Positions 11,190-58,854 of a DNA stretch of 64,000 nt are shown here, piece by piece. The stretch lies in NCBI RefSeq assembly GCF_019923745.1, contig NZ_JAANOG010000006.1:66716-130715 (forward strand), given 5' to 3'. This DNA comes from Aquirufa aurantiipilula (GTDB lineage: Bacteria; Bacteroidota; Bacteroidia; Cytophagales; Spirosomataceae). How positions within the stretch are numbered: the stretch's first letter is position 1; every line of letters begins with the position of its first letter. The translations under genes and the position numbers were made by a program. Under the pieces are notes generated by a model. The model was not told where the DNA came from and did no database searches. It worked only from the letters and a program-made list of their open reading frames with translations.

Positions 11190-12551
11190 CTATTTTATTG
11201 CTTTCAAACGATTTGTATCTGGCGGACTAAATTGAAATTTGCCTTCCACAATAGATACGTCGGGGCGGGCTGTTTTCAATCGTTGTAAACCTTCTTGACT
11301 AAGCTTACTCTGCCAAATATAAAGAACTTTTAATGCCTTCATCGCAACAATGGCTTTTATCCCCTGGTCAGAAATCCCTGTACCATAGAGATTTAACTGA
11401 CTTAGATGAGGTAATTGCCCCAAATGTTCTAAATCAGCATCTTGAACATTACTTTGTTCTAGATTCAGTTGCTGAAGGTTCTTAAAATTCAAAAGATCTT
11501 CCACTTGGATGTCTTGTCTTTTAGATAATTTAATTTGTAAAACTTGTTTTTGTAAAGCACTTGTCGCTTGCCAAACTTTTGGATCCAGACGCTTAATATT
11601 GACAAAATTTAAGCTCAAACCGCCGTTCGAGGATGGATAGGGGCTAATACTAATGCCTTGTTTTTTTGCTTCTAGCAGGGCTTCATCGGATGCGGGTTTT
11701 ATAGGCAGAGGCAGAGGCATTGCATGCAATGACTTTACAGTCGCATGCAATGACTCTGCCTCTGACTCACCAAAAGGAGCACCCATTTCAATCCATCTTT
11801 TAATGATGTCAATCTGCCTTGAGTTCAGTTGTTTTTTACCTTCTGGAGGCATGTGTAAATCATCGTCTTCTGGCAAAATCAAATAACTATATAAATGACT
11901 TTTTAGCGGATTTCCTGCATGTAAGATTAGGCCTTCCTTTCCGCCTTTTTTGATAAAAGTCTTGGTATCCAAACGTAGTTTTCCTTTCTGTTTTTTACTC
12001 GAATGACATTGAAAGCAATGGCTTTTTAAAATGGGTAAAACTTCTTGCTCAAATGGATTATTTCCTTTCATGCGAACCACTTCAATTGCGGTATCCAGTT
12101 CGACTTTCTGTTGAATTGTATCTATGGTGGAAAGGCTCAATTTCTTCACAGGAGAATTTGTCTTTTTACTGGCAAATAAATAGTTAGATCCATAGGTAAG
12201 CTCACCACCTAAATGACCCGTGATAGCTATAGCAATGAGTAAAACAAGGCTAATGATTTTTTGATAAGCTTGAAAAAAATAAAGAATGATGGCACAAATG
12301 CTTGTTCCTATTCCCCACCATTGATGGGCTAAACCATCTCCTTTTTCATACTCACCTGAATTGGATAAAAGAAAGCCAGAAATAGCGGCCAATATAGCTG
12401 CGATAGTCCCCAACAAAAGTAGGATAGAAATGGAGGATTGGGTTTCAGTCTTCCGAATAGCCTGCAACCAAATCATGACACAAGCTAAAACCAATATCCC
12501 AATGGGAAAGTGTACTAAAAAGGGATGAAAATGGCCTAACAAATCAATCAT
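11190..12551 (-). CDS. DUF2231 membrane domain + c-type cytochrome + leucine-rich repeats
   Basis: 453 residues. Four transmembrane helices of the DUF2231 type occupy residues 8-117 (starts IDLLGHFHPFLVHFPIG). A PSCyt1-like cytochrome domain follows, with heme motif C179-F-Q-C182-H183 and a distal MPPEGK segment. A short linker holds an in-frame palindrome (residues about 263-282). The C terminus (about 310-450) has leucine-rich repeats of ribonuclease-inhibitor type (LQQLNLEQSNVQDADLEHL). It could pass electrons between a membrane quinone pool or partner and the secreted cytochrome encoded next. That role is inferred; the domain reading is firm. Confidence 0.85.
   Translation of the reverse strand: MIDLLGHFHPFLVHFPIGILVLACVMIWLQAIRKTETQSSISILLLLGTIAAILAAISGFLLSNSGEYEKGDGLAHQWWGIGTSICAIILYFFQAYQKIISLVLLIAIAITGHLGGELTYGSNYLFASKKTNSPVKKLSLSTIDTIQQKVELDTAIEVVRMKGNNPFEQEVLPILKSHCFQCHSSKKQKGKLRLDTKTFIKKGGKEGLILHAGNPLKSHLYSYLILPEDDDLHMPPEGKKQLNSRQIDIIKRWIEMGAPFGESEAESLHATVKSLHAMPLPLPIKPASDEALLEAKKQGISISPYPSSNGGLSLNFVNIKRLDPKVWQATSALQKQVLQIKLSKRQDIQVEDLLNFKNLQQLNLEQSNVQDADLEHLGQLPHLSQLNLYGTGISDQGIKAIVAMKALKVLYIWQSKLSQEGLQRLKTARPDVSIVEGKFQFSPPDTNRLKAIK
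11706..11764. repeat. In-frame palindrome inside the DUF2231-cytochrome gene
   Basis: Arms 11706-11727 and 11743-11764 are reverse complements over 22 bases with one mismatch (core GCATTGCATGC), separated by 15 bases. In the protein it encodes residues 263-282, SEAESLHATVKSLHAMPLPL, exactly in the linker between cytochrome and leucine-rich domains. The segment is internally repetitive at the DNA level (two copies of CATTGCATGC-like sequence) and looks inserted. Confidence 0.75.
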
Positions 12552-13411: not shown

Positions 13412-13978
13412 ATGGAAAACCGATTTCAAGAAACATTTGAGAAGAAATATTACACTGTGGAGGGGTTCCCGAAAGGAGAATATGAAGCTTGTATATTTAA
13501 GCATTGTGATTTCGCTCAATTGGATTTATCGGAATATTCGTTCATCAATTGTCAGTTCCAAGATTGCAACCTTAGCCTTGTCAAGATGGGAAATACCAAA
13601 TGGCAACATGTGACCTTTGAGAATTGCCGCTTGCAAGGTTTGCATTTTGAATACGCCAACCCTTTTTTATTTGAGGTACACTTTGACCATTGCTTTTTAA
13701 ATCTATCATCATTTTATCAGCGACAAATGAAAAAGGCAAAATTTAAACATTGCTCATTGCATGAAGTCGATTTCGGAAATGCCAATTTGAGCGAGGCTAT
13801 TTTTGAAGAATGTGATTTGTTGCATGCGCAATTTGACCAAACTAATTTAGAAAAGGCCGACTTCAGAACATCGTATCATTTTGAGATAAATCCTCAAATT
13901 AATCGAATCAAAAAAGCCAAATTTTCTAAATCAAGTCTAGCAGGTTTATTGACGAGCTTTGGCATCATCATTGATTAA
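13412..13978 (+). CDS. Pentapeptide repeat protein
   Basis: 188 residues with repeated A(D/N)LXX-like and (F/C)-x-x-C pentapeptides along most of its length: FKHCDFAQLDLSEYSF, FINCQFQDCNLS, FENCRLQGLHFEYANP, FKHCSLHEVDFGNANLSEA, FEECDLLHAQFDQTNLEKADF. These form a right-handed quadrilateral beta-helix. Its length and mid-protein irregularity are similar to Qnr/MfpA-type DNA-gyrase-protecting proteins, but most pentapeptide proteins have other or unknown roles, so I do not name it. Cytoplasmic (no signal). Its 3' end overlaps the convergent DUF1569 gene by 33 bases. Confidence 0.82.
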   Translation: MENRFQETFEKKYYTVEGFPKGEYEACIFKHCDFAQLDLSEYSFINCQFQDCNLSLVKMGNTKWQHVTFENCRLQGLHFEYANPFLFEVHFDHCFLNLSSFYQRQMKKAKFKHCSLHEVDFGNANLSEAIFEECDLLHAQFDQTNLEKADFRTSYHFEINPQINRIKKAKFSKSSLAGLLTSFGIIID

Positions 13979-14449
13979 TTCCGCCATTATTTTTAAGTGA
14001 TGGTGAGTATGGATTCTCAAAAAATAATGGGTGTCCTTTAGATCCAAATCTCCAAAAATAAAATGGTGAAAATAGGTTTTAGTTGGTAGGGTCTTCATCT
14101 CTTCCAATAATTGATGCACCTTGGCCAGCGAATCCTTTACACATTGATCCGTTACATGTAAATCCGTTACATGTAACGGATCAATGTGTAAAGGATCAAC
14201 ATACTTCGGGGCTTTCACACGACCCCTTGGAATTTTTTGAGTAAAAAATATCCATGCTCTTCTCCAATTAAATACCCAGCGGTAACTATTGATATCGGAT
14301 TTTTTTAGGGCACTTATGATACTGATCATCACCAACAGACAATGTTCAATATGCCAGCCAACTGAGCCCTCAGAAATATGGGGATTAGTCACATGCATAT
14401 GAGACATGTTTTCTTCCAACTGTTGAACTTGCCTTTCTAATGATTCCAT
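13946..14449 (-). CDS. DUF1569 / DinB-superfamily protein with a palindromic insert
   Basis: 167 residues. The DinB-like four-helix layout with conserved histidines is visible: GWHIEHCLLVM near 31, then KIPRGRVKAPK, then FHHFIFGDL and HTHHHLKIM near the C terminus, where His residues normally bind a metal. Residues 85-106, DPLHIDPLHVTDLHVTDQCVKD, are encoded by a perfect 65-base hairpin and look like an insert; without it the length would be about 145, nearer what I expect of the family. The 5' end overlaps the upstream acetyltransferase by 13 bases and the 3' end overlaps the pentapeptide gene. Function unknown. Confidence 0.75.
   Translation of the reverse strand: MESLERQVQQLEENMSHMHVTNPHISEGSVGWHIEHCLLVMISIISALKKSDINSYRWVFNWRRAWIFFTQKIPRGRVKAPKYVDPLHIDPLHVTDLHVTDQCVKDSLAKVHQLLEEMKTLPTKTYFHHFIFGDLDLKDTHYFLRIHTHHHLKIMAELINDDAKARQ
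14132..14196. repeat. Perfect 29-bp-arm palindrome inside the DUF1569 gene
   Basis: Left arm 14132-14160 and right arm 14168-14196 are exact reverse complements with a 7-base loop (AATCCGT). The inner part is itself built of GTTACATGTAAC-like self-complementary units. It encodes residues 85-106 of the DUF1569 protein in frame, without a stop. Such a long perfect hairpin is not expected from coding constraint. Confidence 0.9.
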
Positions 14450-14940
14450 GGGTCTTTTTTATACACAAGTAATTGTTGATGATCTCGTACTATGCTCCTT
14501 TCAAATGTCAAACTTAGGTGTAGTAATAAGCGTATGGAGCGCACATTATCCTCTAAGGTAGTAGCGAATATAGGTGCTTTTTGATTGGCAAAATAATCCT
14601 CCAATACTAAACTAGCGGCTTCATAAGCATAGCCCTTCCCAAAATGAGACGGTAAAAAAGCAAAACCGATATCCGGTTGAGGTAAATAATCTCTTTGAAC
14701 CAGGGAAATAATTCCAAGAGGAATATCGGCAGATTGAAGAAATACCACTCGATAATGAATCCCAGGATTATCGCGCAATTTGGTACAAAAATCCTCGGCT
14801 TCGAGTAAGGTTCTTACACCTCTATCTCCTATAAACTGAATAAATCCAGGAGTATTCAATAATTCCAGTAAAAATGAGGCATCATTAAGACCTAGATCTT
14901 TAACATATAATCGTTGACTTTTTAATAGCTTGACCACCAT
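14437..14940 (-). CDS. GNAT family N-acetyltransferase (RimJ/RimL type)
   Basis: 167 residues. It has the RimJ/RimL-like N terminus (SQRLYVKDLGLNDASFLLEL), a central acceptor-site strand (DIPLGIISLVQRDYLPQPDIGFAFLP) and the acetyl-CoA loop GKGYAYEAASLVLEDYF, followed by the N-x-x-S-I-R-L-L motif (DNVRSIRLLLHLSL) typical of the family. It transfers acetyl to an amine; the target may be a ribosomal protein N terminus or a small molecule and cannot be told. It overlaps the following DUF1569 gene by 13 bases, so they are probably coupled. Confidence 0.85.
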   Translation of the reverse strand: MVVKLLKSQRLYVKDLGLNDASFLLELLNTPGFIQFIGDRGVRTLLEAEDFCTKLRDNPGIHYRVVFLQSADIPLGIISLVQRDYLPQPDIGFAFLPSHFGKGYAYEAASLVLEDYFANQKAPIFATTLEDNVRSIRLLLHLSLTFERSIVRDHQQLLVYKKDPWNH

Positions 14941-16454: not shown

Positions 16455-16487
16455 AGATTTGTCAACTTTTGAAAAGTTGACAAATCT
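16455..16487. repeat. Dispersed palindrome, family AGATTTGTCAACTTTT (copy 1)
   Basis: Perfect 16-1-16 palindrome with arm AGATTTGTCAACTTTT and central G. It lies between the stop of the DsbA-like gene and the start of hemN, both minus strand. The same sequence recurs at 36688-36720 with only the central base changed, and a variant at 49446-49477. It could act as a terminator for the DsbA-like gene. Confidence 0.88.
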
Positions 16488-29457: not shown

Positions 29458-29490
29458 AACGCTGTCAAGGTTTAAAACCTTGACAGCGTT
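29458..29490. repeat. Dispersed palindrome, family AACGCTGTCAAGGTT (copy 1)
   Basis: Perfect 16-1-16 palindrome (left arm AACGCTGTCAAGGTTT), between the glycan cluster and the DoxX-like gene. Three more copies lie at 29958, 58072 and 58822. Arm order here is CGCTGTC outermost. Confidence 0.88.
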
Positions 29491-29957: not shown

Positions 29958-29996
29958 GAACAACGCTGTCAAGGTTTGGAACCTTGACAGCGTTGT
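29958..29996. repeat. Dispersed palindrome, family AACGCTGTCAAGGTT (copy 2)
   Basis: Perfect 18-base arms (AACAACGCTGTCAAGGTT and complement) around TGG, then T-rich sequence. It lies between convergent genes (DoxX-like and thrC), so it would also serve as a shared terminator. Confidence 0.88.
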
Positions 29997-36687: not shown

Positions 36688-36720
36688 AGATTTGTCAACT
36701 TTTAAAAAGTTGACAAATCT
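36688..36720. repeat. Dispersed palindrome, family AGATTTGTCAACTTTT (copy 2)
   Basis: Perfect 16-1-16 palindrome identical to the copy at 16455 except for the central base, between convergent rnr and aldo/keto reductase genes. It is followed by two tandem AATTGACAAATCT-like half-units up to about 36740, showing partial duplication of an arm. Confidence 0.88.
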
Positions 36721-49445: not shown

Positions 49446-49477
49446 AGATTTGTCAAATTTTAAAATTTGACAAATCT
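49446..49477. repeat. Dispersed palindrome, family AGATTTGTCAA (copy 3, variant)
   Basis: Perfect 16-base arms (AGATTTGTCAAATTTT), no central base. Bases 49399-49450 before it contain degenerate direct repeats of AGATTTGTCAA, so the element is partly duplicated here. Located just 3' of the serine hydrolase gene. Confidence 0.85.
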
Positions 49478-58071: not shown

Positions 58072-58104
58072 AACCTTGCCAGCGTTCCAAACGCTGTCAA
58101 GGTT
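58072..58104. repeat. Dispersed palindrome, family AACCTTGACAGCGTT (copy 3)
   Basis: Arms of 15 bases around CCA, one mismatch in the left arm (GCC for GAC), arm order reversed relative to copies 1 and 2. Its flanks (TTTCTAAACCTTG before, AACGAAA... and TTTTCTTxTCCAAxAAACTGAT after) are shared with copy 4, so about 80 bases are duplicated around the HAD gene. Confidence 0.85.
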
Positions 58105-58144: not shown

Positions 58145-58822
58145 ATGAAAGTTATCGCCTTTGATGCGGATGATACATTATGGGTCAATGAGCCCTATTT
58201 CAGTGAGGCAGAACAACACTTCTGCCAAATGATGGAAGATTTTCTACCCATTCACAGTACTTCACAGGAGCTTTTCAAAACAGAAATGGATAACCTTGAT
58301 ACCTATGGGTATGGTGTTAAAGGGTTTATGTTGTCCATGATTGAAACTGCCACTCGAATTTCTAAAGGAACAATTGGACTGGATGGAATTGAACGTATTT
58401 TGGCTATTGGAAAAGAATTAATCCATAAGCCGATTGAAATTTTACCGGGTGTGGAAGAAGTATTAGGTGCTTTATCCCAAAAATATCGTTTAGTCGTGGC
58501 AACCAAAGGCGACTTATTGGACCAAGAAAGGAAACTAGCCAAATCTGGATTAGAAAAATACTTCCACCACATTGAAATCATGTCCAACAAAAAGGAACAT
58601 GATTATTTAAAATTAATCCATCATCTAGATATTCAAACAAACGAATTTCTGATGATTGGTAATTCCTTAAAATCGGATATTTTGCCAGTTTTGGCTATTG
58701 GTGGACATGGCATTCATGTACCTTTTCACACGACTTGGGCACATGAACAAGTGTCACATCAGATCATTCATGAAAACTTCCGTGAAGTGAATGAAATGCT
58801 TGAAATTTTGAATTTTCTCTAA
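58145..58822 (+). CDS. HAD-superfamily hydrolase
   Basis: 225 residues. HAD motif I FDADDTLWVN (nucleophile Asp and D+2), motif II VVATKGD (Thr), motif III lysine in the QERKLAKSG region, motif IV MIGNSLKSDI. Helical cap in about 15-90. Phosphatase or beta-phosphoglucomutase-like activity on an unknown substrate. The gene is flanked by two copies of one palindrome, and its stop codon overlaps the second. Confidence 0.85.
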   Translation: MKVIAFDADDTLWVNEPYFSEAEQHFCQMMEDFLPIHSTSQELFKTEMDNLDTYGYGVKGFMLSMIETATRISKGTIGLDGIERILAIGKELIHKPIEILPGVEEVLGALSQKYRLVVATKGDLLDQERKLAKSGLEKYFHHIEIMSNKKEHDYLKLIHHLDIQTNEFLMIGNSLKSDILPVLAIGGHGIHVPFHTTWAHEQVSHQIIHENFREVNEMLEILNFL

Positions 58823-58854
58823 ACCTTGACAGCGTTTGGAACGCTGTCAAGGTT
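58822..58854. repeat. Dispersed palindrome, family AACCTTGACAGCGTT (copy 4)
   Basis: Perfect 15-base arms around TGG. It begins at the last base of the HAD stop codon and lies between convergent HAD and NifU-like genes, so it may double as a terminator. Confidence 0.9.

What the first reader, a model, noticed from the sequence alone, without database searches (positions are those of the whole stretch)
14132..14196. Perfect 65-nt hairpin inserted in frame in a DinB/DUF1569 gene
The two 29-base arms are exact reverse complements, with a 7-base loop. They translate in frame to DPLHIDPLHVTDLHVTDQCVKD, exactly at a surface-loop position between KAPKYV and DSLAKVHQLLEEM, and the gene stays open. 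Removing this stretch would give about 145 residues, closer to what I expect of the family. In-gene palindromic insertions that keep the frame are known as RPEs in Rickettsia, but I know of no described family in this phylum. The element is also nested: inner GTTACATGTAAC units are themselves self-complementary.
Basis: partly seen in the sequence, partly recalled or inferred. Interest (0 to 1): 0.72.

Follow-up and report, generated by a model that had tools for sequence, protein, structure and literature searches.

The report
Perfect coding hairpin in Aquirufa gene
A freshwater bacterium carries a perfect 65-letter DNA hairpin inside an intact protein gene; relatives carry different, shorter or decayed versions at the same spot and a neighbouring gene carries a second hairpin, so it probably grew in place by copying errors in a spare loop of the protein rather than jumping in as one piece.

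Summary
The hairpin is real: 30-nt perfect arms, 5-nt loop, window 14132-14196, in frame in an intact DinB-like gene. It is not a clean 22-residue insertion. In four close Aquirufa relatives the same linker has 11, 15, 33 (palindromes, some decayed) or 13 residues (none), against 22 here. No second full copy was found in the genome. The DUF2231/PSCyt1 gene 2.4 kb away holds a second in-frame hairpin (11706-11764); 25 nt spanning its loop are inverted relative to relative G024 (25/25 as reverse complement), a template-switch signature. In 1.93 Mb of predicted coding DNA sampled, six in-gene inverted repeats scored 15 or more; three lie in these two genes. A palindrome, ATCCGATGCATGCATCGGAT, links the DUF2231 gene and an intergenic site elsewhere (28 nt identical between two species); outgroup G005 lacks it at both. 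Best explanation: a short coding palindrome in a disordered linker, possibly seeded by a small dispersed repeat in this clade's ancestor, was enlarged and perfected by hairpin-templated copying. The Rickettsia RPE analogy is partly right: palindromic and in frame, but not a unit insertion, and with very few copies.

The parts
13946..14449 (-). DinB-like four-helix protein gene, 167 aa, that carries the hairpin; overlaps the end of the GNAT gene by 13 nt
   Evidence: ORF; Pfam DinB_2 below cut-off; 34 of 59 genomes searched have a homologue; invariant His36, His147, His150, His151 over 20 aligned sequences; model mean pLDDT 83.6
14132..14196 (.). perfect hairpin: arms 14132-14161 and 14167-14196, 5-nt loop 14162-14166
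14162..14181 (.). inner 20-nt perfect palindrome ATCCGTTACATGTAACGGAT; relatives have ATCCGATACATGTATCGGAT (G016, perfect), ATCCGTTACATGTCACCGAT (G033) and ATCCCTTACAAGTAACGGAT (G020) at the same place
14147..14176 (-). 15-nt tandem direct repeat TTACATGTAACGGAT x2 in the coding strand (14162-14176, then 14147-14161); a diverged version is in G020
   Evidence: alignment
14182..14196 (-). outer 15 nt of the coding-strand 5' arm (ATCCTTTACACATTG), absent from G020
14132..14146 (-). outer 15 nt of the coding-strand 3' arm (CAATGTGTAAAGGAT), exact inverted copy of the previous part; G033 lacks this side
11190..12551 (-). DUF2231 / PSCyt1 / leucine-rich-repeat protein gene, 453 aa, with the second in-frame hairpin in its variable linker
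11706..11764 (-). second coding hairpin: 22-nt arms with one mismatch, 15 nt between; encodes SEAESLHATVKSLHAMPLPL
   Evidence: (z -7.44)
11722..11746 (-). 25-nt segment in and beside the loop of the second hairpin, inverted relative to G024 (25/25 as reverse complement) and G020 (21/24)
14437..14940 (-). upstream GNAT acetyltransferase gene, overlapping the DinB-like gene

Best explanation
The hairpin is a coding palindrome that grew and was perfected in place. SHOWN: at this linker, between two helices of a DinB-like protein, four of the five close Aquirufa species with an intact gene carry related but different palindromic or decayed-palindromic codons, and G005 carries none; the linker varies from 11 to 33 residues. 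SHOWN: the neighbouring DUF2231/PSCyt1 gene in this genome has a second hairpin whose loop region is inverted relative to its relatives. INFERRED: during replication the short palindrome (ancestor close to GATCCGTTACATGTAACGGATC) folds into a hairpin, the polymerase switches to the other arm as template and back at short homologies such as GATCC, and so makes arms longer and exactly complementary and sometimes flips a loop; a 15-nt tandem duplication adds further length. Selection keeps only events that preserve frame, here in steps of five codons. INFERRED, less sure: the palindromic seeds were spread to three sites in the ancestor of this clade as a small dispersed repeat (core ATCCGATGCATGCATCGGAT). 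The hairpin itself most likely does nothing useful; it is tolerated because it lies in a disordered loop.
For: Palindrome or its decayed form at the same linker in G000, G016, G020 and G033, none in G005. Linker lengths 22, 33, 15, 11, 13. Folding is species-specific: z -11.95 (G000), -1.86 (G016), -0.64 (G020), -0.25 (G033), +0.80 (G005), as expected of a mutational product and not of a conserved structure. G033 keeps a 28-nt quasi-palindrome with 12 of 14 pairs. The tandem 15-mer is shared with sister species G020. In the DUF2231 gene 25 nt are inverted relative to G024 (25/25) and G020 (21/24); 0 of 1000 shuffles as good for each of these two, 1 of 1000 for G033. Of six in-gene inverted repeats scoring 15 or more in 1,930,801 nt of predicted coding sequence, three are in these two genes; five codon-shuffle replicates gave one in all. 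The linker is disordered in the model. The mechanism is established in E. coli: abstract and passages of PMC7202029; hairpin creation, abstract and opening of PMC8794818; loop inversion in yeast coding DNA, abstract of PMC8604942.
Against: For the DinB hairpin itself the direction of copying is ambiguous: G020 lacks the outer 5' arm whereas G033 lacks the outer 3' arm, so no single event is demonstrated. That the inserted arm is a 15/15 reverse complement of the rest follows from the palindrome and is not independent evidence. The loop inversion is in the neighbouring gene, not in this one. The 28-nt identity between the DUF2231 site of G016 and the intergenic site of G020 needs dispersal between sites, which in-place copying alone does not give. 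Only six close species were available, one genome each.
Confidence: 0.6

Rival explanations
1. A dispersed in-frame palindromic element, working like the Rickettsia palindromic elements: a mobile palindrome landed in the DinB-like and DUF2231 genes and in one intergenic site in the ancestor of the clade; the present hairpin is one of its copies, later altered.
For: ATCCGATGCATGCATCGGAT and its 15-nt unit occur in the DUF2231 gene (G016) and between convergent GH88 and PhyH genes (G000, G020; variants in G016 and G033) on different contigs. Best match between the two sites 28 of 28 nt; 0 of 60 shuffles. DinB palindrome of G016 matches at 18 of 20; 0 of 2000 random palindromes, 2 of 2000 permuted ones and 14 of 2000 with the CA|TG centre fixed score as well. 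At the sites where it could be judged it is absent from outgroup G005: DinB linker, DUF2231 locus (no TGCATGCA, and none in 18 other genus loci), intergenic site. That suggests gain of all three on one branch.
Against: No second full copy of the window's hairpin. The G000 DinB palindrome alone is no closer to the others than chance (score 8; 161 of 2000 random palindromes do as well). Very few copies, no recognisable ends or target-site duplication seen. The shuffles break symmetry and so are a lenient control. The exact pattern gave six stretches in 84,980 genomes, two of them in this clade, so the family is not widespread.
Confidence: 0.25
2. A selected structure: the hairpin in DNA or mRNA has a function, for example a protein-binding palindrome, an mRNA stability or translation-pausing element.
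For: Very stable fold. Perfect palindromes with paired changes between species (CCGTT..AACGG against CCGAT..ATCGG at DinB; CCGAT..ATCGG against CTGAT..ATCAG at the intergenic site).
Against: Stem strength is not conserved: three of five species have no significant fold at the DinB linker (z -0.64, -0.25, +0.80) and G016 is marginal (7 of 200 shuffles). G024 has lost the middle of the DinB gene and the intergenic palindrome.
Confidence: 0.1
3. Assembly or sequencing artefact, such as a fold-back chimera.
For: Perfect palindromes are a known artefact class (recalled); the genome is a draft in 70 contigs and no reads were available.
Against: The arm is in frame, its inner part is shared with four species' linkers at the same place, and a second, imperfect hairpin and an inverted segment lie in a neighbouring gene.
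Confidence: 0.03
4. Chance or protein-level constraint: the codons for a repetitive peptide happen to be self-complementary.
For: Another in-gene inverted repeat (alpha/beta hydrolase, G000:C60:90884-90927) encodes a stretch that is conserved in protein across all six species, so there chance plus constraint suffice.
Against: Expected number of stems of 30 or more about 1e-10 in a genome; five codon-shuffle replicates of the sample reached at most score 16 against 30 observed; the linker peptide is not conserved.
Confidence: 0.02

Closest known systems
Quasipalindrome-associated template-switch mutation (E. coli, yeast)
   Same: Imperfect inverted repeat becomes a perfect one; loop inversion; occurs in coding DNA (passages of PMC7202029; abstract of PMC8604942).
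   Different: The published bacterial assays are of short reporter hairpins. Here the product is a fixed 30-bp perfect stem in a natural gene, with a second case 2.4 kb away and parallel variants in sister species.
Rickettsia palindromic elements (RPE), and the Wolbachia and Methanocaldococcus coding palindromes
   Same: Palindromic sequence in frame within genes and also between genes (passages of PMC2229807, and PMC10969869; the Wolbachia and Methanocaldococcus reports are known here only through passages of PMC2996958).
   Different: RPEs are 105-150 nt and were reported 44 times in R. conorii; here the shared core is 20-28 nt, with about three sites per genome found, and the window's full hairpin is single.
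Coding palindromes of nematomorph mitochondria
   Same: Long perfect inverted repeats in translated genes, gained and lost between species; template switching proposed (Discussion read, PMC6649704).
   Different: There the arms lie in conserved protein regions of mitochondrial genes and reach 284 bp; here the arms are in a disordered linker of a free-living bacterium.
PARCEL (palindromic amphipathic repeat coding elements)
   Same: Tandem repeats whose coding DNA is palindromic; reported also from Salinibacter ruber (passages of PMC2996958).
   Different: PARCELs are 25-residue DUF285-type repeats in membrane or surface proteins; here the unit is 15 nt / 5 residues in a DinB-like protein without such a domain.
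REP elements / RAYT transposases
   Same: 20-40 bp palindromes (abstract as listed, PMC3733652); the genome has a Y1 transposase gene and abundant 33-nt intergenic palindromes.
   Different: REPs are extragenic and high-copy; the motif here is neither, and does not match the 33-nt families.

Membership tests
Template-switch (quasipalindrome) product | inverted repeat more perfect than in relatives at the same site | tested here: met
   perfect 30-nt arms in G000; quasi-palindrome 12 of 14 pairs in G033; z-scores weaker in each of the four relatives
Template-switch (quasipalindrome) product | loop or spacer inversion between arms | tested here: met
   met for the neighbouring DUF2231 hairpin only; cannot be seen for the DinB hairpin, whose loop is 5 nt
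Template-switch (quasipalindrome) product | one dated event with both switch points reconstructed from a near-identical ancestor | tested here: inconclusive
   the nearest species is 80% identical in protein, and G020 and G033 lack opposite outer arms
Rickettsia palindromic element (RPE-like mobile palindrome) | several copies of the element in different genes of one genome | tested here: not met
   no second full copy; the related 20-nt core found at one other site in G000
Rickettsia palindromic element (RPE-like mobile palindrome) | in-frame insertion absent from homologues | tested here: inconclusive
   21 of 21 distant homologues aligned and G005 lack the extra residues, but three close relatives hold related residues of other lengths (26 of 34 homologue-bearing genomes aligned)
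Rickettsia palindromic element (RPE-like mobile palindrome) | same sequence also in intergenic sites | tested here: met
   met for the DUF2231 palindrome (28 nt shared with an intergenic site); for the DinB palindrome only through G016 (18 of 20)
Rickettsia palindromic element (RPE-like mobile palindrome) | length 105-150 nt | tested here: not met
   65 nt
PARCEL | 25-residue DUF285-type repeat | tested here: not met
   Pfam scan shows only weak DinB_2 and DUF1569
REP element | extragenic, high copy number | tested here: not met
   in a gene, single full copy
DinB superfamily (host gene) | four-helix bundle with conserved metal-binding histidines | tested here: inconclusive
   Pfam DinB_2 below its cut-off; invariant His36, His147, His150, His151; best solved structures are YfiT/DinB-like but with E 0.023 or worse; the role of the histidines is recalled, not tested

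The most novel reading that the evidence does not exclude
Aquirufa harbours a minimal dispersed palindrome (20-28 nt, core ATCCGATRCATGYATCGGAT, 15-nt unit) that was spread to at least three sites in the ancestor of one clade, two of them inside genes and in frame, and that since then enlarges and re-perfects itself at each site by hairpin-templated copying. It would be a coding parasite whose 'replication' is the host polymerase's template-switch error, seeded by rare copying between sites, with or without help of the genome's Y1 (RAYT-like) transposase, whose own gene end also carries amplified palindromes.
Probability: 0.25. Interest if true: 0.75.

Novelty: new variant of a known kind. Interest (0 to 1): 0.5.

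Why it matters
Long perfect inverted repeats are rare in translated genes. Here a free-living bacterium shows one being built: sister species hold intermediates at the same codon positions, and a neighbouring gene shows a flipped loop. That makes the question of how new protein segments arise from hairpin copying errors testable by strain sequencing and by a lacZ-type reporter, and gives a middle case between ordinary template-switch mutations and Rickettsia-type selfish coding palindromes.

Tried and rejected
Search for further full copies in the genome: none. A looser unit pattern over 38 genomes of the genus gave scattered hits; of the 30 loci kept (L048-L077) none printed a stem of 9 or more within 80 nt. 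Pattern GATCCG..CGGATC in six genomes: other hits are not palindromic. ATCC(N4)CATG(N4)GGAT with one mismatch in six genomes: the listing was cut in the G016 part; perfect palindromes outside the three sites: one, a terminator in G020. Viral contigs: no match to the exact pattern. Exact pattern in 84,980 genomes: six stretches, two in this clade and four in unrelated bacteria, about what I estimate for chance (my estimate, roughly 4; the tool says that records very near the window's genome may be left out). Considered and dropped: integron attC (core motifs recalled, not matching), RNA-level regulation (not conserved), intrinsic terminator (no T-run; inside a gene). The hydrolase hairpin at G000:C60:90884 is conserved as protein and not a further case. 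Two of the six in-gene hits there (L225, L204) look like terminators inside spurious or over-extended ORFs, judged by eye.

Full report
WHAT IS THERE. The window has a perfect inverted repeat at 14132-14196: 30-nt arms, 5 nt between. It lies inside a 167-aa ORF on the minus strand, 13946-14449, and reads in frame as residues 85-106, DPLHIDPLHVTDLHVTDQCVKD. The protein is DinB-like: Pfam DinB_2 E 6.8e-4, below the curated cut-off; homologues in 34 of 59 genomes searched; invariant histidines at 36, 147, 150 and 151 over 20 aligned sequences; AlphaFold mean pLDDT 83.6 with residues 77-98 below 50, so most of the palindromic stretch is a disordered loop between helix 62-70 and helix 101-118. Foldseek's best solved structures are YfiT and DinB-like proteins but with E 0.023 or worse. 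The single strand folds with z -11.95 as DNA and -50.4 kcal/mol, z -11.44, as RNA.

WHERE IT COMES FROM. The window lies in a 3.08-Mb, 70-contig draft genome. Its genus is inferred to be Aquirufa: relatives G020 and G016, called 'same genus' by the tool, have contigs whose length and match positions agree with NZ_SEWX01000008 (A. nivalisilvae 59G-WUEMPEL) and JAIXWL010000001 (a pond MAG). A tree of 1,701 columns from the genes around the locus (the DUF2231 gene included) gives G000 with G020, then G033, G024, G016 and G005, if rooted on G005; splits 100, 85 and 100.

THE SAME LINKER IN RELATIVES. I aligned 26 of the 34 genomes with a homologue; eight were left out (one with a stop, one broken, six not taken). 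In 21 distant homologues and in G005 the extra residues are missing. In the close clade the linker differs in length and content: G000 22, G020 15, G033 11, G016 33, G005 13 residues. G016 has the perfect palindrome ATCCGATACATGTATCGGAT at this place, G033 ATCCGTTACATGTCACCGAT, G020 ATCCCTTACAAGTAACGGAT. So the palindrome predates this species; the large perfect form is its own. G020 also has a diverged tandem copy of the 15-nt unit TTACATGTAACGGAT that is exact in G000. G020 lacks the outer 5' arm and G033 the outer 3' arm, so the last enlargement cannot be given a direction. In G024 the gene is broken: residues 53-121, linker included, are gone and there are stops.

A SECOND HAIRPIN NEXT DOOR. 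A relaxed scan of the sampled sequence (2,050,002 nt, 1,930,801 predicted coding, six genomes, uneven and including the loci of interest on purpose) gave six in-gene inverted repeats of score 15 or more. They are the DinB hairpin (30), the DUF2231/PSCyt1 gene of the window at 11706-11764 (19), the same gene in G016 (17), a hydrolase (16, conserved as protein in all six species), and two (21 and 15) that look like terminators in spurious ORFs. Five codon-shuffle replicates gave one hit in all, of score 16. The DUF2231 linker folds with z -7.44 in G000, -8.64 in G016, -3.84 in G024, -1.67 in G033, -1.51 in G020, -0.89 in G005. In G000 a 25-nt stretch of it (11722-11746) is the exact reverse complement of the G024 sequence and 21 of 24 of the G020 sequence, while the direct orientation matches at only 12-13 nt, in one arm; for the 19-nt core 0 of 1000 shuffles did as well for G024 and G020, 1 of 1000 for G033. 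The relatives agree with each other, so the inversion is on the G000 branch. Spacer inversion and arm homogenisation are what template switching between inverted repeats does (abstract of PMC8604942; passages of PMC7202029).

A SHARED MOTIF. ATCCGATGCATGCATCGGAT occurs in the DUF2231 gene of G016 and between convergent GH88 and PhyH genes in G000 and G020, with variants in G016 and G033. The best match between DUF2231 and intergenic sites is 28 of 28 nt (G016 against G020; 0 of 60 shuffles; these shuffles do not keep symmetry and are lenient). The DinB palindrome of G016 is 18 of 20 like it: 0 of 2000 random palindromes, 2 of 2000 permuted and 14 of 2000 with fixed centre score as high; the palindrome of G000 itself is no closer than chance (161 of 2000). 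At the intergenic site, of 12 genomes examined, four have the palindrome, G024 has lost or never had it, G005 has an ordinary hairpin, and the 170 nt printed for the other six show none. TGCATGCA is in the DUF2231 locus of five of five clade members and in 0 of 19 others. So the sites were probably filled on the branch after G005 split off; this favours some dispersal, at least between the DUF2231 and the intergenic site.

HOW IT WORKS. I take the common core of the evidence to be hairpin-templated copying in linkers that tolerate change: short coding palindromes are enlarged, made perfect, duplicated in 15-nt steps, flipped or lost. Shown: position, perfection, species-specific variants, loop inversion next door. 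Inferred: the polymerase switch, the microhomology at GATCC, the absence of function. Whether the seeds came from a dispersed element is open; I give that as the chief rival and as the novel case.

WHAT IS KNOWN. Coding palindromes are known from Rickettsia (passages of PMC2229807, and PMC10969869), Wolbachia and Methanocaldococcus (cited in passages of PMC2996958), as PARCELs, reported among others from Salinibacter ruber (same passages; that this genus was long counted with the Bacteroidetes is recalled), and in nematomorph mitochondria (Discussion of PMC6649704). Inverted repeats concentrate outside genes across taxa (passages of PMC13155455; PMC4060949, which also names Azobacteroides among genera with palindromes extremely over-represented in coding sequence). 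My eight paper searches listed no report of coding palindromes in Aquirufa; the listings were cut at 8-25 papers where more matched, and the library lacks most subscription journals, so this is weak evidence of absence.

Noticed in passing
window 16455-16487, 36688-36720, 49446-49477; 29458-29490, 29962-29994, 58072-58104, 58822-58854: Two families of 33-nt palindromes: AGATTTGTCAACTTTnAAAGTTGACAAATCT (9 copies in the 850 kb of G000 sampled) and AACGCTGTCAAGGTTTnAAACCTTGACAGCGTT with variants (7 copies); those scored in the census lie between or at the edge of predicted genes. They also occur in the relatives.
   Followed up: partly
L172-L176 (Y1_Tnp loci of G016, G033, G020, G000, G024): The 33-nt AACGCTG..CAGCGTT palindrome starts about 570-705 nt upstream of the Y1 transposase (RAYT-like) ORF in 5 of 5 of these loci, which are probably orthologous and so may count as one observation.
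   Followed up: partly
L172-L176, downstream of or overlapping the 3' end of the Y1 transposase ORF: A further palindrome family, AGCCATGGATTTAAATCCATGGCT and variants, overlaps or follows the 3' end of the ORF; in G016 and G033 it is amplified downstream in longer repeat units.
   Followed up: partly
G024:C25 (L122 9904-10157): The DinB-like gene is a pseudogene in G024: the middle, including the linker, is deleted and stops are present.
   Followed up: yes
G000:C60:90884-90927 (L096): A 16-nt-arm inverted repeat inside an alpha/beta-hydrolase-like gene; perfect only in G000 but the protein stretch is conserved in six species.
   Followed up: yes
G000:C60:64119-64169: The space between convergent GH88 and PhyH genes consists almost entirely of 15-nt repeats ending in a palindrome, different in each species.
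   Followed up: yes
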